Shown here: positions 12,310 through 21,341 of the stretch, piece after piece
Layout: the number at the start of each line of letters is the position of its first letter
Numbering within the stretch: position 1 is the first letter of the stretch
Source of the DNA: Methanoregulaceae archaeon PtaB.Bin056
GTDB lineage: Archaea > Halobacteriota > Methanomicrobia > Methanomicrobiales > Methanospirillaceae
Reading direction: 5' to 3'
DNA: 33,281 bases
Assembly: GCA_002067095.1 (NCBI GenBank)
Contig: MVQD01000026.1
Location: 1-33,281, forward strand
Notes under the pieces: generated by a model
Told to the model about the DNA's origin: nothing
The model's database searches: none
Seen by the model: the letters and a program-made list of their open reading frames with translations, nothing else
Made by a program: the position numbers and the translations under genes

Positions 12310-13602
12310 TCATTTGGGTTTGTAGTACCCCCACTTCTCCAGGGACTGCGCGAGCTCGGGCGACGATCTGGCCTTCTCGTCCAGGGTCAGTCCATCTTTC
12401 CACGCCTCGATTGCCTGCATGGTCGCGATCGCGCCGGCGCGGGTACCCTTCGGGTGCCCGTGGACCCCGCCGCTCACCAGGAGCACGAGGTCTGTCCCGT
12501 AGATATCGAGGACGTCCGGGACGAGGCCCGGGTGCAGGCCCCCGGAGGAGACCGGGAATGCACTCTTGATGGAACCCCAGTCCTGGGAGAGAAGGGCGTG
12601 CCGGACCTCTTTAACCCGGCGCTCCCTGAGCACGTCGGCGAGGATCCGGGCCTCCTTCCTTGACCCGGTGAGCTTGCCCACCGCAGTCCCGGTATGGATC
12701 TGGGAGACGCCGATCATCCGCATCATCTTTGCCAGGAACTGCATGGTGATCCCGTGCTTTGGGTTCCTGTCGAATGCCGCATGCATCGCGCGGTGCGCGT
12801 GGATCGCGAGCCCGAGGTCCGAGCAGTAGTCCCGCATTGTCGCGACCGCCGCGGTCCCGGCCACCACCACGTCGATCATCGCGTAGTTCCAGCCGCTCTC
12901 CGCGAGCATCTTCGCACGCTCCTTCATCGTCTCCGTGTCTCCCGTGATGTTGAGGAAGGCGGACTTCACCTCGCCGGTCGCCTGCTCGGCCCGGTCGCGC
13001 ATCCTCGTCATTTCCCGTACACGGTCCTCGAACCGGTTGAAGGAGGTGGAGGTCAGGTTCTCGTCGTCTTTTACGAAGTCAAAACCACCCATCCAGGTCT
13101 CAAACCCTATCTCGGCATGCTCCCGTGCGGAAAATCCCACCTTGGGCTTGGGGACTGCGCCCGTAAGCGGGCGGCCCTCCACCCGCATCATCTTCCGGAT
13201 ACCCTCCATCCCGAAGTGCGGGCCTTGGAAGTGCCGCAGGTATCCGGGGGGAAGGCTCACGTCGATGAGGCGGAGGTTTCGTATCGCCTTCATCCCGAAG
13301 ATATTTCCCGCAATCCCGCTCAGGAGCTGCACTGCGTTCCCCTCCTCCCAGAGGCCGGGGGGATACGCGATCCGGGCATACCTGCCTTCGATCTCGTGGA
13401 CCGTTGCCTGGAGGTCCCTCATCCTTGGCGGGAGCGTGTGGAGCGTGGTCCAGGTCCCGGTCGAGCTCTCGGACGCGATCCTTCCTGCCGCCTCCTCGCT
13501 GCTGATCCCTTTTGCCGGTTCAAAATAAAAGAGTGCGTCCAGTTCGTCCTTCGCGGGCACGTAACCGGGGTCCACGAAGTCCATGTACCAGTCGATTGCC
13601 AT
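12310..13602 (-). CDS. rbcL: Form III ribulose-bisphosphate carboxylase
   Basis: The 430-residue enzyme carboxylates ribulose 1,5-bisphosphate to 3-phosphoglycerate. Catalytic residues are present: K152-P-K154, the carbamylated K178 in V-K-D-D-E with D180 and E181, H270-R271 in H-A-H-R-A-M-H, H303 and loop-6 K310 in I-H-T-G-T-A-V-G-K, S353-G-G, and S-G-G-V-H-G-H-P. The sequence is of the archaeal form III type. In archaea this enzyme works either in the AMP/nucleoside salvage pathway or, with phosphoribulokinase, in the reductive hexulose-phosphate cycle known from Methanospirillum; no phosphoribulokinase is in this window. The ATG at 13602 has GGGAG 6 bases upstream. The gene is divergent from an isocitrate-lyase family gene. 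Confidence 0.95.
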   Translation of the reverse strand: MAIDWYMDFVDPGYVPAKDELDALFYFEPAKGISSEEAAGRIASESSTGTWTTLHTLPPRMRDLQATVHEIEGRYARIAYPPGLWEEGNAVQLLSGIAGNIFGMKAIRNLRLIDVSLPPGYLRHFQGPHFGMEGIRKMMRVEGRPLTGAVPKPKVGFSAREHAEIGFETWMGGFDFVKDDENLTSTSFNRFEDRVREMTRMRDRAEQATGEVKSAFLNITGDTETMKERAKMLAESGWNYAMIDVVVAGTAAVATMRDYCSDLGLAIHAHRAMHAAFDRNPKHGITMQFLAKMMRMIGVSQIHTGTAVGKLTGSRKEARILADVLRERRVKEVRHALLSQDWGSIKSAFPVSSGGLHPGLVPDVLDIYGTDLVLLVSGGVHGHPKGTRAGAIATMQAIEAWKDGLTLDEKARSSPELAQSLEKWGYYKPK

Positions 13603-13728
13603 ATGTGTCTCCCTGTAAAGTAAGGGAGGGGGAGGGATAATAAGAGTGCCAATGGCGCAAAAAAGCCCCCACCGATGGCATGGATCCCGGCGAAACACAT
13701 AAGTCCAGGCGGTTTTTTAATCCTGGTG
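13603..13728. promoter_or_regulatory. Divergent promoter region, RuBisCO and lyase-family gene
   Basis: This 126-base spacer must hold the promoters of both genes. TTTTTTAATCC at about 13713-13723 is close to the plus-strand start. AT-rich GGATAATAAG at about 13634-13643 is a minus-strand TATA candidate about 35 bases before the RuBisCO ATG. Confidence 0.35.
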
Positions 13729-14932: not shown

Positions 14933-16330
14933 ATGGCCCGGACCATTAGTGCCGTCCTTCTCGTCATCACCATGGCGTGCCTTCTTTGTTTCTCTCATGC
15001 AGTTGCTGAAGATGCAAATACTGTGTATCAGCAGGCACTGGACCTCTATTACCAGCAAAAACTTGACGATGCACTGGTCACTTGCGAGAGAGCCCTTTTG
15101 CTCAATCCCAAATCGTCCAGCTCCTGGGTCCTGAAGGGACTTATCCTCGATGACCTTGGAAGATATCAGGAAGCGTTGAATGCGTATGATGAAGCGATAA
15201 CACTGAAGCCCAACAGCCATATTGCCTACAACAATAAGGGCAATACTCTCAAGCATATGGTCCGATACGATGAGGCACTGGAGGCATATGACCAATCACT
15301 CAAAATCAATCCCTCATATACCACTGCCTATTACAATAAAGGAAATCTTCTCTCTCTTATCGGCCGCTATAACGACGCTATCAAATCTCTGGATAGTGCA
15401 CTCTCATATGATCCTCATTACGCAGATGCGTGGTATGCCAAAGGTCTCGTATACCAGAAAATGACAAAGCACCAAGACGCAATATTCTGTTTTGAGAAGG
15501 CCATTGCAGAGAAAACAGAGTATAAAGAAGCTTATTATAAAAAAGGAGTTTCTTTAATTGAACTTGGATGGACAGACGATGCAATAATGGCTTTTTCGAA
15601 GGCGCTCGATATAGATCCACAATACACGGATGCAAAAATTCAATTGAATAAACTCCTCCAGGAAAACGCGACACAGGGAGAAATTCCCGGTGCGCCGGTT
15701 CTTCCTACCGGCGTGGATATGTGGTTGCTTTTAATAATCATCCTCATCGCCGGGGGGGCGGGTGCCGGAATACTCTTTTTCAGGTCCCGTCACGCATTGC
15801 CATGGAATAAACCTGAACTCCGAGCCACCGGGATATCCACAGCCAGGAGTGCTGATGATGCCGCTTGCGATAAAGAACCACGAACGCCCTGGGTTCACGA
15901 TGTGTTCATCAGTTACTCCTCCCAGGACAAGGCAATTGCCGATGCTGTGTGCGCGGGCCTGGAGGCCCGCCGAATCCGTTGCTGGATAGCCCCGAGAGAT
16001 CTCATGCCCGGAGTGCTGTATCAGGAGGGCATCATACGGGCTATCGAAGGTTCCAGGTTCATGGTTTTTATTTTTTCGTCCCATTCAAATAATTCTCCCC
16101 ATATCATCAGGGAACTCACAAAAGCGGTTTCGAGCGGAGTTATAATCATCCCGTTCCGCATCGAAGACGTGCTCCCATCAAAAACCATGGAATACCTCAT
16201 TGGTGCCCCGCACTGGCTTGATGCCCTCACTCCGCCCCTCGAAGCGCACATATTGAAACTTGCCGATACCATCGAGTCTCTGCTATCTTCAGAACGGGAT
16301 AGAAATACTGAACAAGAAAAAAGGATTTGA
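14933..16330 (+). CDS. Secreted-TPR, transmembrane, cytoplasmic TIR-domain protein
   Basis: The 465-residue protein has a signal peptide (residues 1-25), about six TPR repeats (27-230; recurrent A-Y-x-x-K-G and Y-x-E-A-x-x-A-Y/F motifs), a linker, one transmembrane helix (263-283), a basic stop-transfer segment, and a C-terminal TIR domain (about 321-440). The TIR has D-V-F-I-S-Y-S-S-Q-D-K, the C-W-I-A-P-R-D loop, and I-I-R-E-L with E394 at the place of the catalytic Glu of TIR NADases. The TPRs should lie outside the membrane and the TIR inside, like a receptor. TIR domains of this kind can cleave NAD or make cyclic ADP-ribose isomers; activity here is inferred. It may signal to the RyR-domain channels 1.4 kb downstream. 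It converges on hisD with a 21-base gap. Confidence 0.85.
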   Translation: MARTISAVLLVITMACLLCFSHAVAEDANTVYQQALDLYYQQKLDDALVTCERALLLNPKSSSSWVLKGLILDDLGRYQEALNAYDEAITLKPNSHIAYNNKGNTLKHMVRYDEALEAYDQSLKINPSYTTAYYNKGNLLSLIGRYNDAIKSLDSALSYDPHYADAWYAKGLVYQKMTKHQDAIFCFEKAIAEKTEYKEAYYKKGVSLIELGWTDDAIMAFSKALDIDPQYTDAKIQLNKLLQENATQGEIPGAPVLPTGVDMWLLLIIILIAGGAGAGILFFRSRHALPWNKPELRATGISTARSADDAACDKEPRTPWVHDVFISYSSQDKAIADAVCAGLEARRIRCWIAPRDLMPGVLYQEGIIRAIEGSRFMVFIFSSHSNNSPHIIRELTKAVSSGVIIIPFRIEDVLPSKTMEYLIGAPHWLDALTPPLEAHILKLADTIESLLSSERDRNTEQEKRI

Positions 16331-16351: not shown

Positions 16352-17602
16352 TCAGTGAGAGCGGCGCCTGATACGCACCGACTCGGCGTGGGCACAGAGC
16401 CCCTCGGCGTCGGCGATGGTCTCGATGGTGTCTCCTATTGCCTCAAGGCCTCTCCTGTCGATGATCTGGACCGTTGATGTCTTGCAGAAATGCGAGACGT
16501 TCAGGCCTGAGTAGGTCTTCGCGTACCCGGCGGTTGGTAAAACGTGGTTCGTCCCGGAGGCATAATCCCCCGCGGCAACCGGGGTATACGGCCCCACAAA
16601 GATGGATCCCGCGTGTTTGACCGCATTGAGGACCGTGAGCGGATCGGCGACCTGGATCGAGAGGTGCTCGGGTGCAATCTCGTTCATGCCGGATATCGCC
16701 TCCTCCATCGTGGGCACTAAGACGTACCCTGAATTCCCAAGCGCCTTCTCGATGATCTCCTTCCGGGGCGACTCCCGAAGCAGTCTCGAAAGCTCCGCCT
16801 TCACCCGGTCGACAAGCGCTTCATCGGTGGTGATGAGCACGCAGGCCGCGTCCGGGTCGTGCTCTGCCTGGGCCAGGATATCGATCGCGATGAACAGGGG
16901 GTTCGCATTCCCGTCCGCGATGATCCCGATCTCGCTTGGGCCCGCGGGAAAGTCGATCTCGGCGTGCTCCCGGAGCATCATCTTCGCGGCCGTCACGTAC
17001 ACGTTGCCCGGCCCGACGATCTTCTGGACCGGGCGGATGGTCTCTGTCCCGAGTGCCATCGCCGCGACCGCCTGGGCGCCGCCGATCCGGTAAATCTCGT
17101 CGACGCCTGCGATATCGAGCGCAACAAGAGTCAGGGGGAGGACCGGAGGAGGAGTACAGGCGCACATCTCGGGGACCCCCGCGACTTTTGCCGGCACGGC
17201 GTTCATCAGGGCAGTCGAAGGGTACGCCGCTCTCCTGCCCGGCACGTAGAGGCCGACGCGGTCGAGGGGCGTGGTCTTGACACCGAGCACGATGCCTGGC
17301 TCCACCTCATCGAGCCAGAGGCTCCGCTCCTTCTGGAGTTCGTGGAACCTCGTGATCCGCGCCTCGGCCTCGATGAGGCTCTCAAGGAGCCCTTCATCCA
17401 CTTCACCGTAGGCCGCCTCGATCTCGTCTTTTGTAACCCGCACCGAGGTGATATCCGGTTCGTGCTTCCTTGCCATTGCAAGCAGCGCCCCGTCACCCCC
17501 TTCCCGGACCGCCTGGATGATCCCGGCCACGGAGACTTTCGCCTCGTCGAGGCTTGACCGCCGTTCCGCCACCCAGCGGTCCACATCAAGCGCGTTGAAC
17601 AT
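16352..17602 (-). CDS. hisD: Histidinol dehydrogenase
   Basis: The 416-residue enzyme performs the last two oxidations of histidine synthesis (histidinol to histidine, two NAD+, zinc-dependent). It is complete. It has V-G-L-Y-V-P-G-R near residue 116, G-G-A-Q-A-V at 174-179, V-G-P-G-N-V at 196-201, and zinc ligands Q245 and H248 in A-Q-A-E-H-D-P. D346 lies in A-A-G-D-Y-A-S-G-T-N-H, a likely H405 near the C-terminus, and the catalytic pair E312-H313 in I-A-P-E-H-L-S. No other his genes are adjacent, which is common in methanogens with scattered his genes. The start at 17602 lacks a ribosome site; a leaderless transcript is likely. It sits as a single opposite-strand gene between the TIR and RyR-channel genes. 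Confidence 0.95.
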   Translation of the reverse strand: MFNALDVDRWVAERRSSLDEAKVSVAGIIQAVREGGDGALLAMARKHEPDITSVRVTKDEIEAAYGEVDEGLLESLIEAEARITRFHELQKERSLWLDEVEPGIVLGVKTTPLDRVGLYVPGRRAAYPSTALMNAVPAKVAGVPEMCACTPPPVLPLTLVALDIAGVDEIYRIGGAQAVAAMALGTETIRPVQKIVGPGNVYVTAAKMMLREHAEIDFPAGPSEIGIIADGNANPLFIAIDILAQAEHDPDAACVLITTDEALVDRVKAELSRLLRESPRKEIIEKALGNSGYVLVPTMEEAISGMNEIAPEHLSIQVADPLTVLNAVKHAGSIFVGPYTPVAAGDYASGTNHVLPTAGYAKTYSGLNVSHFCKTSTVQIIDRRGLEAIGDTIETIADAEGLCAHAESVRIRRRSH

Positions 17603-17762
17603 GCGGTCTTATGGTTTCTCTTTTCGAAAGATAAGGGTGTGTCCGGGTGTGGTCCTTTGACGGTATCTCACGGTGAAAAGAGCGGCCCCGGCTATCGAAC
17701 AGAGAGACTTTTTTTTGGCGCTCCCAAGGATTCATATCAGTTCAGTCATTCAATATTTTCCC

Positions 17763-19532
17763 ATGGAACGCTCTTTTTACCGGGTGCGCTCGTACTTGTT
17801 CCTGCTGCTCGCCGTGCTGGTGCTTGGCACGCTTGCTGTCATTCTGACAGAGGGGTTGTCCCCCTTAAATGCGTTCTATTTCGTTATTGTGACAATTGCA
17901 ACCGTGGGATACGGGGACTTTGTGCCACAGACTGGATACGGGAAAATCGTCGCTGTTCTCCTTATCATCGCCGGAGTGGGGACGTTTATTGCAATTTTTA
18001 CCGAAATTATCTGGTTGCGGGATAAAATTCGTGAGATACCAGTTCTTTTTTACAGGGATCATGTGATTATCTGCGGGGTCAATGAAACCACTGAAACCCT
18101 CGTGCAACAATTAAGGAGCGAAAAAACCAAATCGGTTGTAATAAGTGGAAACGAAAGCACTCGTGAGGCCGGAATTTTCCGTGGAAGGGACACCGTTGTA
18201 CTTTTTGGCGATCCGAAAGACACTTCACTTCTCTCCCTCGCCCAAGTGAAGAACGCCAGGGCGCTGTGTGCACTGACCGATTCCGATGGCCTGAATGCAG
18301 AAATTACTCTCTCTGCAATGAAGATTCTGGAAAAGCGAAAAGGAAAGCCGCTCACCTGTATTCATCAGATCACTAATCCGGCGCTCTGGAAAGTCATTCG
18401 TGAACTCGCACTCTCACCAGTCACCAGTGATGCGGTGCGGATAGATTTTTATAACGGACCGGCACTGGGTGCGCGTGCACTCACAAACATGTATTTTACT
18501 CCCCTGATTCCCAGCTGGAGAAGCAGTGAATCGTTGTTCATCGTTGTTGGTGCGGGTCGCTTCGGTGAAAATATCATAGCAAGAGCATCCCGCGAATGGT
18601 TCGAGAATAATGCAACCGAATCGAAGTTAAACATCCTGCTGGTGGACTTGCACGCGGATACACTCGCAGGACGCCTGAAGGCGACATACCCCCACCTCAA
18701 GGAGGCGGTAAATATTCACGCCATGTCCGTAGATGTCCTGTCCCCCCGGTTCCAGGTTCCAGGTTTCATGAAGGAGTATGCCTCGTTCTCACGGGCACTG
18801 GCCTTTATTTGCATCAGCGACGACACCGTGGGCCTGACCGCGGCACTGGCACTCTCCCATCACATGATCGGCATGAACGCCCGGATCCTTGTCAGGATGG
18901 ACCACAATCCCGGGCTTGCACAGCTCGTTGAGGAACAAAATGCAGGAGAAATAACGATTATACCATTCAACAGCCTCTCGCTCGCGGCCCGGCCCGATGT
19001 GGTTCTCGGGGGAATTCGGGAAATGCTGGCCCGGGCTATCCATGAGCAGTACCTGGCAACCCTCTCAAGGAGTCCACCCGTCCAAAAAGGCGTTCCCGCG
19101 GTCCCGTGGGACGAGCTTTCGGAACGGCTCAAAGAATCCAACCGGCTCCAGGCAGAAGACATCCTCGAAAAAATACGGGCGGTTGGGTGCGATATCGTTC
19201 CGATGACTGACTGGACGGCAACGAGTTTCTCTTTTTCGCCCGGGGAGGTTGAATACCTCGCGGAAAGGGAGCATGTGCGATGGATGAACGACATGAAAAA
19301 CCAGGGGTTTTCCTTTGGACCATTGAAGGACGAGCAGAAAAAGAGGCATCCGTTAATGGTGCCCTATTCGGATCTGCCCGAGACAGAGAAGGAGAAGAAC
19401 CGGGATGCTGTCCGGATGATTCCCCGCTATCTTGCCCTCATCGATTTTCAGCTCTACCGCCCGGTGCGTAGTGCATCCCCGCCGGGTGAATGGAAGACTG
19501 GTATCCCCCATCGTAATATCCAGGGAAATTAA
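17763..19532 (+). CDS. Two-helix potassium channel with TrkA-N/RCK domains and C-terminal RyR domain
   Basis: The 589-residue protein has helix M1 (10-29), a pore loop with an intact K+ filter T-V-G-Y-G-D (47-52), helix M2 (59-80), a first TrkA-N/RCK-like nucleotide-binding domain (about 98-230), a second one with canonical G-A-G-R-F-G (263-268), and a C-terminal RyR domain (about 446-560). The RyR domain is marked by H-P-L-M-V-P-Y-x-D-L-P-E-x-E-K and N-R-D-A-V-R. The C-terminal parts face the cytoplasm, so ligand binding there could gate K+ flow. RyR domains in prokaryotes are rare and thought to sense nucleotide-derived or modified ligands (inference from the literature). The ATG at 17763 directly precedes M1; an in-frame GTG at 17673 adds 30 unlikely residues. 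A close paralogue follows. Confidence 0.85.
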   Translation: MERSFYRVRSYLFLLLAVLVLGTLAVILTEGLSPLNAFYFVIVTIATVGYGDFVPQTGYGKIVAVLLIIAGVGTFIAIFTEIIWLRDKIREIPVLFYRDHVIICGVNETTETLVQQLRSEKTKSVVISGNESTREAGIFRGRDTVVLFGDPKDTSLLSLAQVKNARALCALTDSDGLNAEITLSAMKILEKRKGKPLTCIHQITNPALWKVIRELALSPVTSDAVRIDFYNGPALGARALTNMYFTPLIPSWRSSESLFIVVGAGRFGENIIARASREWFENNATESKLNILLVDLHADTLAGRLKATYPHLKEAVNIHAMSVDVLSPRFQVPGFMKEYASFSRALAFICISDDTVGLTAALALSHHMIGMNARILVRMDHNPGLAQLVEEQNAGEITIIPFNSLSLAARPDVVLGGIREMLARAIHEQYLATLSRSPPVQKGVPAVPWDELSERLKESNRLQAEDILEKIRAVGCDIVPMTDWTATSFSFSPGEVEYLAEREHVRWMNDMKNQGFSFGPLKDEQKKRHPLMVPYSDLPETEKEKNRDAVRMIPRYLALIDFQLYRPVRSASPPGEWKTGIPHRNIQGN

Positions 19533-19694
19533 TCTATTTTGCAGAATTGAAAGAGGGGCGCTTGAAAATGCAGCATAAATCATAGAGAACTATTCAGATT
19601 CTCTTTGGTCTTCTGTGAACACCTGAATTCAACAAATTTTTCTATGTGTGGATTCACTGTATCGTACGAGAGATGTCCCATTGCTGGTTCAGAT

Positions 19695-21341
19695 ATGCCG
19701 AATTCACTGATTGATGTCCTTAATGCAGTTGGCAGCCTGCTCCGTTTTGGCGTTATGCCCATCTATTCTGACAGGTTTATCCAGATCCTGGCAGCAGCTT
19801 TTGCCGGTTCAGGTTCAGCCGGGATCCTTGTTATCCATTTTCGCGATAAAATCCGGGAGATGCCCCTTGCGTTCTGCAGGAACCACGTGGTAATCTGTGG
19901 CGTGCATAAAACTACTGAAGTTCTCGTGGAACAGTTCAGGGACCAAAAGATAAAAACCGTCGTAATCGGAGCGGGAGAAGATTCCCCCGAGGGAGAAAAC
20001 ATCAGGAGATCCAGCACGGTAATGCTTTCCGGAGATCCAAAAAACCCTGCGGTACTCTCCCTTGCCCGGGTGAATAAAGCCAGGGCTTTGCTTGCCCTGA
20101 CCGGTTCCGATGGCCTGAATGCAGAAATTGTCCTTTCTGCGATGAAAATCCTCGAAACGCGGAAAGGAGAGCCCCTCGAATGCATCCTTCAGATCAGCAA
20201 CCCCAGCCTCTGGAAAATAATTCGTGAACAGGTGCTTTCACCTGCCAAAAATCCGGTTGTGAGGATCGATTTTTACAACGGGCCATCCCTTGGGGCACGG
20301 GATCTTCTCGCATCCTATTTTACTCCCCATGTAAGGACTTCGTTGAAACATGCCCCGCTCCTGGTCGTGGTAGGTGCAGGGAGTCTTGGAGAGAATATCA
20401 TCGCGGGGGCTTCCCGTGCATGGTACGAGAGCGGCTTGCAACCAGCACCCCTCGAAGTTATCCTCGTTGACCTGAATGCGGAAGAGATAAAAAAACGCCT
20501 TTACCTGACCTATCCCCGTCTCCGCGATGCCGCAGACATCCACGCGGTACCCTTTGATGTAAGGTCTGCCGAGTTCCAAAGCGGCAGTTATCTGAAAACC
20601 TCCGGATCATACCCTTTCGTGTTAGCTTTCGTCTGCCTTAATGACGATACGGCAGGCCTGACCGCAGCCTTGGCTATCTCTCACCACCTTGTCGGGCTGA
20701 ATGCCCGGATACTGGTCAGAATGGATCACAACCCTGGCCTCGCAACCCTGGTCGAAGAGATGTCTCCTGAAACGATTCCAATTATTCCCTTCAACAGTCT
20801 ATCCTTTGCAGCACGGCCTGACGTTGTTCTCGGAGGTATCCGGGAGATCCTGGGACGGGCGATCCATGACCAGTACCTTCTCACAAAATCATTGCACGAA
20901 CCTGTGCAGAACGGTTCGGCAATGGTCCCTTGGGATGACCTTCCTGAACGCCTCCGGGAGTCCAACCGGCTCCAGGCAGAAGACATCATACATAAATTAC
21001 GGGCTATCGGTTGTGATATTCTCCCGATGACGGACTGGAAGTCAACTGCCTTTTCTTTCACCCCGGATGAGATCGAGTATCTGGCTGAAATGGAGCATTT
21101 GCGCTGGATGAAAGCGATGAGAGCCCAGGGATTTTCATTCGGAGCCATTAAAGACGAAAAAGAAAAAACACATCCTTTGATGGTGCCGTATAATGATTTG
21201 CCCGAAACCGAAAAAGAAAAAGACCGGGACGCGGTCCGAATGATCCCTCGCTATCTTGGCATGATCGACTTCCAGGTATACCGCCCAAACCAGAATCCAA
21301 AGGGAGCGGAGATGATAACCAAGTTCATTGAAAAGGACTAG
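19695..21341 (+). CDS. Pore-less paralogue of the RCK-RyR channel protein
   Basis: A 548-residue tandem paralogue of the preceding protein; most residues match from R-D-K-I-R-E-(I/M)-P to near the end. It keeps the two TrkA-N-like domains (second with G-A-G-S-L-G), the shared V-R-I-D-F-Y-N-G-P core and the C-terminal RyR domain (H-P-L-M-V-P-Y-N-D-L-P-E-T-E-K). The N-terminus differs. M1 is missing, the filter is replaced by A-V-G-S-L-L-R-F-G, and only a helix in the place of M2 (about 27-48) remains. It therefore cannot conduct K+ alone. It may be a regulatory partner for the intact channel, or a decaying copy, although the rest of the frame is undamaged. In-frame ATG at 19644 and TTG at 19605 are alternative starts. 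Confidence 0.78.
   Translation: MPNSLIDVLNAVGSLLRFGVMPIYSDRFIQILAAAFAGSGSAGILVIHFRDKIREMPLAFCRNHVVICGVHKTTEVLVEQFRDQKIKTVVIGAGEDSPEGENIRRSSTVMLSGDPKNPAVLSLARVNKARALLALTGSDGLNAEIVLSAMKILETRKGEPLECILQISNPSLWKIIREQVLSPAKNPVVRIDFYNGPSLGARDLLASYFTPHVRTSLKHAPLLVVVGAGSLGENIIAGASRAWYESGLQPAPLEVILVDLNAEEIKKRLYLTYPRLRDAADIHAVPFDVRSAEFQSGSYLKTSGSYPFVLAFVCLNDDTAGLTAALAISHHLVGLNARILVRMDHNPGLATLVEEMSPETIPIIPFNSLSFAARPDVVLGGIREILGRAIHDQYLLTKSLHEPVQNGSAMVPWDDLPERLRESNRLQAEDIIHKLRAIGCDILPMTDWKSTAFSFTPDEIEYLAEMEHLRWMKAMRAQGFSFGAIKDEKEKTHPLMVPYNDLPETEKEKDRDAVRMIPRYLGMIDFQVYRPNQNPKGAEMITKFIEKD

What the first reader, a model, noticed from the sequence alone, without database searches (positions are those of the whole stretch)
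17763..21341. Tandem RCK-RyR duplication in which the second copy lost its K+ pore
The two proteins match closely from the end of M2 to the C-terminus. In the second, M1 is gone and T-V-G-Y-G-D is replaced by A-V-G-S-L-L-R-F-G while the cytoplasmic domains are intact. This looks like specialisation into a non-conducting regulatory subunit, not random decay. Alternative: a recent deletion in progress.
Basis: seen in the sequence. Interest (0 to 1): 0.6.

Follow-up and report, generated by a model that had tools for sequence, protein, structure and literature searches.

The report
Nucleotide-sensor protein gained potassium channel pore
In a methane-making archaeon, one of two sister nucleotide-sensing membrane proteins has been given a ready-made potassium-channel pore by gene fusion, and the whole protein family sits beside TIR enzymes of the kind that make alarm nucleotides in immunity, which suggests an archaeal counterpart of signal-gated ryanodine-receptor channels.

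Summary
The tandem pair is real: A (17763-19532) and B (19695-21341) share 63% identity from the end of M2 to the C-terminus. B's pore-less N-terminus is ancestral: it is conserved in B', in two other genera and, more distantly, in six Methanoregula genomes. B's 'AVGSLLRFG' is part of its first helix, not a ruined filter. A is the novelty. Its leader and first ~83 codons come from an ordinary single-RCK K+ channel and are joined in frame to the RCK-RCK-RyR body. The A/B duplication predates the split of two species. Both copies are under purifying selection at equal rates. The orthologous locus also carries one pore and one pore-less copy. In the order, 24 of 46 RyR domains lie within 2 kb of a TIR domain (0.11 expected; 0 of 76 ordinary K+ channels). 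RyR residues that bind ADP-ribose in a phage RyR protein are conserved. Best explanation: a TIR-RyR module in which TIR makes an NAD-derived signal, RyR/RCK senses it, and the membrane part acts as effector, which in A is a K+ pore. Pore gain is near certain. The TIR-RyR link is strong. The signal, K+ flux and antiviral role are inferred.

The parts
17763..19532 (+). Gene A: chimeric K+ channel, 2TM pore + RCK1 + RCK2 + RyR, 589 aa
   Evidence: AF2 pLDDT 88, pTM 0.78; Foldseek best hits GsuK then MthK
17722..17762 (+). Conserved leader of A, apparently carried over with the pore from the donor channel gene
   Evidence: 95% over 41 bp with A'; 84% over 31 bp with the same position upstream of the channel gene of G101 (E 2e-5); weaker with G105, G096, G098
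17763..18011 (+). Acquired pore module (about 83 codons): M1, pore helix, filter, M2
   Evidence: 50-65% identical to pores of ~275-300 aa channels in the order, match ending at residue ~83; pore tree sister to genus g17 channels, support 92/84
17901..17918 (+). Selectivity filter TVGYGD
   Evidence: sequence; intact in A'
18063..18377 (+). RCK1 (TrkA_N) of A; degenerate glycine motif CGVNET
   Evidence: Pfam PF02254 E 8e-16; motif
18618..19070 (+). RCK2 of A; intact GAGRFG nucleotide-binding motif
   Evidence: AF2; motif
19083..19472 (+). RyR (Repeat12-like) region of A; ligand residues H, W, H kept, D replaced by N
   Evidence: Pfam PF02026 E 8e-17; Foldseek to human RyR3 Repeat12
19695..21341 (+). 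Gene B: pore-less membrane RCK-RCK-RyR protein, 548 aa (ancestral architecture)
   Evidence: AF2 pLDDT 83, pTM 0.79; Foldseek TrkA, GsuK, RyR3
19704..19859 (+). Two-helix N-terminal hairpin of B (residues 4-24 and 28-55), no P-loop; includes AVGSLLRFG
   Evidence: AF2; conserved in L004, L005, L006 and Methanoregula loci
20931..21293 (+). RyR region of B with H468, W471, H493, D510
   Evidence: Pfam E 6e-16; conservation across 22 proteins
14933..16330 (+). TPR-TM-TIR protein, member of the TIR subfamily that neighbours RyR proteins in the order
   Evidence: Pfam TIR_2 E 7e-20; subfamily alignment with conserved Glu
16352..17602 (-). hisD-like gene lying between the TIR gene and A; TIR-hisD order also present in G026
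   Evidence: sequence, identified from general knowledge; synteny

Best explanation
A and B are membrane-bound members of an archaeal RCK-RCK-RyR family that works with a neighbouring TIR enzyme. Shown by comparison: the ancestor had a two-helix membrane hairpin, two RCK domains and a Repeat12-type RyR domain. It duplicated before the split of the two species that carry the pair. One copy (A) then had its hairpin exchanged for the leader and 2TM pore of a MthK-like K+ channel, giving an intact channel with a GsuK-like gating ring. Inferred: the TIR protein turns NAD+ into an ADP-ribose-type nucleotide under infection or stress. The RyR domain (and perhaps RCK2) binds it, the RCK ring changes shape, and the membrane part responds. 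In pore-less members the hairpins perturb the membrane, as proposed for Thoeris TM-macro ThsA. In A the ring opens a K+ pore, so K+ efflux and depolarisation become the effector. B may form its own rings or co-assemble with A as a non-conducting subunit.
For: Polarity: tree ((A,A')100/99,(B,B')100/99)99/98 inside pore-less G007 (90/82), G032 (100/100) and Methanoregula; AU test rejects a species-specific duplication, p 1e-5; B's N-terminus is shared by these outgroups. Pore donor: match to ordinary channels ends at residue ~83 where homology to B starts; the leader is also homologous to a donor-type gene. Pore fusion found in 2 of 232 genomes of the order. Selection: dN/dS 0.16-0.19 across A, 0.11-0.16 for B's body, Tajima tests even. 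Orthologous pair with an IS256-like element between the copies. TIR link: 24/46 RyR domains within 2 kb of TIR_2, 0.11 expected; 28/46 within 5 kb, 0.28 expected; genome co-occurrence 30/4/33/165; control 0/76 ordinary K+ channels within 20 kb. Operon-like layouts: TIR stop overlaps RyR start in G115, ~5-10 bp gaps in Methanoregula. Also outside the order: G241, G248. Ligand residues H/W/H/D of phage RyDEP (PMC13232231) at the same spacings, H and W in 22/22. Folds match GsuK with ADP or NAD, TrkA, and human RyR3 Repeat12 with ADP/ATP. Precedent for a two-helix TM effector with a TIR partner: PMC11204291.
Against: In the window the TIR gene is not adjacent: hisD on the other strand separates it from A. 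In G026 the TIR is 11.7 kb from A'. No PADLOC model matches the RyR proteins and ThsB models match the TIRs only weakly or not at all. 18 of 46 RyR domains have no TIR within 5 kb. No ligand binding, NADase, conductance or antiviral data exist. Window A carries N where 21 of 22 relatives have D510. The donor grouping rests on 83 columns and is not starred (92/84).
Confidence: 0.6

Rival explanations
1. One reading: B is a degenerate copy of a pore-bearing ancestor, which lost its pore and became a regulatory subunit.
For: A and B are a tandem pair, and B lacks a filter but keeps its body under selection.
Against: B's N-terminus is homologous to those of pore-less outgroup proteins in other genera; loss would require the same ancestral N-terminus to return. 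A's pore and leader belong to another gene family.
Confidence: 0.03
2. A is a housekeeping K+ channel whose RCK2/RyR domains read cellular nucleotides (NAD, ADP, ATP) for ion homeostasis, as GsuK and TrkA do. The TIR neighbourhood concerns other members of the family and not this pair.
For: RCK2 keeps GAGRFG; best folds are GsuK with ADP/NAD and TrkA; in the window hisD intervenes, and in G026 the TIR is 11.7 kb away; A has N at D510.
Against: Patchy distribution: 2 of the genomes of the genus hold RyR proteins and at least ten do not. The order-wide TIR association is very strong, the same TIR subfamily lies 3 kb away, and it is the only TIR_2 gene found in the genome.
Confidence: 0.25
3. A and B co-assemble into one hetero-tetrameric gating ring in which B is a non-conducting partner that tunes A.
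For: 63% identical RCK tandems and a same-strand pair kept together in two species.
Against: No complex prediction was possible; pore-less relatives exist alone in genomes without A, so B has a function of its own; the 162 bp between the genes in the window, and the inserted element in G026, argue against strict co-translation.
Confidence: 0.3
4. The TIR-RyR pairing is a by-product of both genes collecting in defence islands rather than a working pair.
For: Both domains are known from conflict systems in general; TIRs cluster in some loci such as G195.
Against: The same TIR subfamily recurs with overlapping or 5-10 bp spaced frames, in at least seven genera and with two different RyR architectures; window neighbours are housekeeping genes.
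Confidence: 0.12

Closest known systems
GsuK (2TM K+ channel with two RCK domains per chain; PDB 4gx0-4gx5)
   Same: A has a 2TM pore with TVGYGD, a continuous M2-to-RCK1 helix and two RCKs; best Foldseek hit, E 6.5e-13
   Different: A has an added C-terminal RyR Repeat12 domain and arose by recent fusion; 15-19% identity in the Foldseek alignments
MthK-like single-RCK K+ channels of the same archaeal order
   Same: Pore 50-65% identical, and the leader is homologous in genus g17
   Different: Single regulatory part of ~190 aa, no RCK tandem, no RyR
TrkA (tandem-RCK regulator of TrkH; PDB 4j9v, 4j9u)
   Same: B's two RCK domains have the TrkA fold, E 6e-11
   Different: B has a membrane hairpin and an RyR domain; TrkA is peripheral
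Thoeris, TM-macro ThsA type (PMC11204291)
   Same: TIR partner plus a two-helix membrane protein with an ADP-ribose-type sensor domain
   Different: Sensor is RyR with an RCK tandem instead of macro; in A the hairpin is replaced by a K+ pore; no PADLOC ThsA match
Phage RyDEP and animal RyR Repeat12 domains (PMC13232231; PDB 9l90, 6uhb)
   Same: PF02026 domain with H-x-x-W, H and D ligand residues at the same spacing; Foldseek to RyR3 Repeat12
   Different: RyDEP is a phage counter-defence glycosidase or sponge; here the domain is a host protein's C-terminal sensor on a membrane protein

Membership tests
RCK-gated 2TM K+ channel (MthK/GsuK kind), for A | 2TM pore with K+ filter TVGYGD | tested here: met
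   Ion_trans_2 E 1e-15; AF2 M1, pore helix, M2
RCK-gated 2TM K+ channel (MthK/GsuK kind), for A | RCK domains directly after M2 | tested here: met
   TrkA_N; continuous helix 58-96 into RCK1; Foldseek GsuK, MthK
RCK-gated 2TM K+ channel (MthK/GsuK kind), for A | K+ conductance gated by ligand | not testable with these tools
   needs electrophysiology or flux assay
RCK-gated 2TM K+ channel, for B | Pore with filter | tested here: not met
   no Ion_trans match; AF2 hairpin without P-loop
TrkA-type regulator, for B | Two RCK domains per chain | tested here: met
   Foldseek TrkA E 6e-11
TrkA-type regulator, for B | Soluble, peripheral protein acting on TrkH | tested here: not met
   conserved N-terminal hydrophobic two-helix hairpin; a TrkH partner was not looked for
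RyR Repeat12 domain (PF02026) | Domain match above curated cut-off | tested here: met
   61.7 and 58.9 bits against cut-off 27.4
RyR Repeat12 domain (PF02026) | Adenine-nucleotide ligand residues H, W, H, D | tested here: met
   met in B; in A the D is N (residues from PMC13232231)
Thoeris | TIR (ThsB-like) gene near the effector | tested here: met
   order-wide 24/46 within 2 kb; in the window 1.4 kb away with hisD between
Thoeris | ThsA effector with SIR2-SLOG or TM-macro | tested here: not met
   effector is TM or pore + RCK-RCK-RyR; no PADLOC match
Thoeris | TIR makes an NAD-derived signal that activates the effector; antiphage activity | not testable with these tools
   the S..V.RE glutamate is conserved in the 12 full neighbour TIRs of the subfamily, activity unknown

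The most novel reading that the evidence does not exclude
A is a K+ channel opened by a TIR-made ADP-ribose-type nucleotide through an RyR domain. It would be a prokaryotic counterpart of cADPR acting on ryanodine-receptor channels, and the first TIR-immunity effector made by bolting a true K+ pore onto an existing TIR-RyR sensor.
Probability: 0.35. Interest if true: 0.88.

Novelty: new variant of a known kind. Interest (0 to 1): 0.7.

Why it matters
The locus captures the birth of a ligand-gated ion channel: the pre-fusion protein, its sister copy and the donor channel family can all be named, so sensor and pore can be tested separately. If the TIR-RyR pairing works as inferred, it gives a cellular role to prokaryotic RyR domains. 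It would also suggest why phages carry RyR proteins that cut or soak up cADPR signals, and bear on the open question whether animal RyR Repeat12 domains sense ADP-ribose nucleotides.

Tried and rejected
Frameshift or assembly artefact in B: rejected, all three frames upstream show no pore remnant and B' in a separate assembly has the same N-terminus. Pore loss in B: rejected by outgroups and tree. Recent species-specific duplication or gene conversion of the body: AU test rejects A+B of one genome as a clade. Relaxed selection: no. Viral carriage: no relatives in viral contigs. Plasmids: only generic pore/RCK matches covering ~26% of A. PADLOC: no defence model for A or B. The first protein scan of genome contigs found nothing; the alignment scan found eight loci. 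Burroughs et al. 2015, the most likely earlier survey of nucleotide-centred conflict systems, is not held in the library, so an earlier mention of TIR-RyR pairs there cannot be excluded. The ordinary-channel control was run with 69 of the 97 TIR positions; the omitted ones were compared by eye and none lies near a channel.

Full report
Observation. Two + strand ORFs, A (ATG 17763 to 19532) and B (ATG 19695 to 21341), match over 486 residues at 63% identity without gaps, starting at the end of M2 (RDKIRE) and running to the C-terminus. Pfam finds Ion_trans_2, TrkA_N and RyR in A, and only TrkA_N and RyR in B. Upstream of the join there is no protein or DNA similarity between A and B, and no broken pore in any frame before B. 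The observation of a tandem pair with and without a pore is therefore right. The statement that B's filter was 'replaced' is not.

Polarity. Full-length relatives in the same family show that B's short N-terminus (M..SLIDVLNAVGSLLRFG..PIYSE..FLQILAAAFAGSGSAG.L.IYFRDKIR) is conserved in B' (genome G026, same genus), in G007 and G032 (two other genera) and, more distantly, in six Methanoregula genomes; none of these has a pore. A maximum-likelihood tree of the shared cytoplasmic part gives ((A,A')100/99,(B,B')100/99)99/98, with pore-less G007 (90/82) and G032 (100/100) next and the six pore-less Methanoregula proteins outside; joining A and B of the window as a recent duplication is rejected (p 1e-5). 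The duplication thus predates the split of the two species, and the pore arose on the A branch. Loss in B would need the ancestral N-terminus to reappear.

Source of the pore. The first ~83 residues of A are 50-65% identical to the pores of ordinary ~275-300 aa channels found across the order; the match stops where the similarity to B begins. In the order, a pore fused to an RCK-RyR body occurs only in G000 and G026 out of 232 genomes. On a pore tree A and A' join the channels of genus g17 (92/84, 83 columns). The ~40 bp before the start codon are also shared: 95% over 41 bp with A', and 84% over 31 bp with the leader of a g17 channel gene. The transferred piece therefore seems to have been leader plus pore. 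AlphaFold gives A an M1, a pore helix and an M2 that runs on as one helix into RCK1 (pLDDT 88), with GsuK and MthK as nearest solved folds. B is modelled with a two-helix hairpin without pore loop, an RCK tandem like TrkA/GsuK, and an RyR region like human RyR3 Repeat12 (pLDDT 83).

Selection. Pairwise dN/dS between the two species: A pore 0.19, RCK 0.17, RyR 0.16; B RCK 0.16, RyR 0.11, short N-terminus 0.41 over 49 codons. Relative-rate tests show no difference between A and B. Neither copy is decaying. In G026 the two genes lie at ends of two contigs, each carrying part of an IS256-like transposase, with B' followed by the same DUF4349 gene as in the window; the reading of a tandem pair split by an insertion element is an inference.

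A partner: TIR. The window has a TPR-TM-TIR gene at 14933-16330. The same TIR subfamily neighbours RCK-RyR genes again and again: a compact TIR ~5-10 bp upstream in the six Methanoregula loci, a TPR-TIR next to the gene in G032, G007, G036 (second locus) and G115, where the frames overlap. Counting all RyR and TIR_2 domains in 232 genomes of the order, 24 of 46 RyR domains lie within 2 kb of a TIR (0.11 expected from each genome's own TIR number), 28 within 5 kb (0.28 expected), and the two co-occur in genomes (30/4/33/165). None of 76 ordinary K+ channels of the same genomes lies within 20 kb of a TIR. These counts are not phylogenetically independent, but they span at least seven genera, several orientations and a second RyR architecture (PAS-HisKA-RyR), and two further cases lie outside the order. 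In the window and in G026 the pair is looser: hisD lies between TIR and A in the window, and the TIR is 11.7 kb from A' in G026.

Mechanism. A 2026 preprint shows that the phage RyR-domain protein RyDEP binds and cleaves 2'/3'cADPR using H75, W78, H100 and D117, residues it shares with animal Repeat12 domains (PMC13232231). At the same spacings the archaeal proteins have H and W in 22 of 22, the second H in 18 of 22, and D in 21 of 22; the window's A is the one with N, which would fit binding without cleavage but may be drift. RCK2 keeps its GxGxxG motif, RCK1 does not. Thoeris TM-macro effectors give a precedent for a two-helix membrane protein that clusters on binding a TIR product (PMC11204291). 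I therefore infer: TIR makes an ADP-ribose-type signal, RyR (with RCK2) senses it, and the membrane part is the effector, with A having exchanged a hairpin for a K+ pore. Shown here: architecture, polarity, conservation, selection, gene association. Not shown: ligand, conductance, oligomer composition, antiviral role.

Place among known systems. A works like a GsuK/MthK channel by anatomy and is a member on the features testable here. B is not a K+ channel and not a classical TrkA. The locus is not filed under Thoeris, because the defining ThsA effector types are absent, although it may work in the same way. Full-text searches found no paper on TIR-RyR pairs in cells, but the held library is partial.

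Noticed in passing
L023, L021, L028, L020 (G034, G010, G016, G041) and L131:3085-5380, L132:4665-7082: A second TIR-RyR arrangement: PAS-HisKA-RyR proteins of ~365 aa directly upstream of a protein that begins with a TIR of the same subfamily. Looks like a separate TIR-RyR signalling pair.
   Followed up: partly
L013, L016, L017, L018, L049, L046 (N-termini): Deeper RCK-RyR relatives have two hydrophobic segments with an intervening stretch like 'TLYKTLQLFTNNYQLQVPPPNLSLQLARFLAP', reminiscent of a P-loop without a K+ filter; possibly a divergent pore.
   Followed up: no
17763-18017 and 19695-19841: Synonymous divergence is lower at the 5' ends of both genes (pS 0.37 and 0.33) than in their bodies (0.55-0.62).
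   Followed up: no
window A at the position aligned to B D510: Window A has N where 21 of 22 relatives, including A', have D, the position aligned with the RyDEP catalytic D117.
   Followed up: partly
L094 3' end and L092 5' end (G026): Parts of an IS256-like transposase at the two contig ends between A' and B', probably one inserted element.
   Followed up: partly
12310-13698 (-): RuBisCO large-chain family protein (E 8e-84) in a methanogen window; the same gene order is seen in G026.
   Followed up: no
L129:3079-7996 (G248, another order) and L110:8565-15958 (G195): RCK-RyR gene convergent, within a few bases, with a large TIR-type protein of 1050-1865 aa.
   Followed up: no
G195:C1:211727-211999: Stand-alone 102-aa RyR ORF with the best PF02026 score of the order (115 bits), amid several TIR genes.
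   Followed up: no
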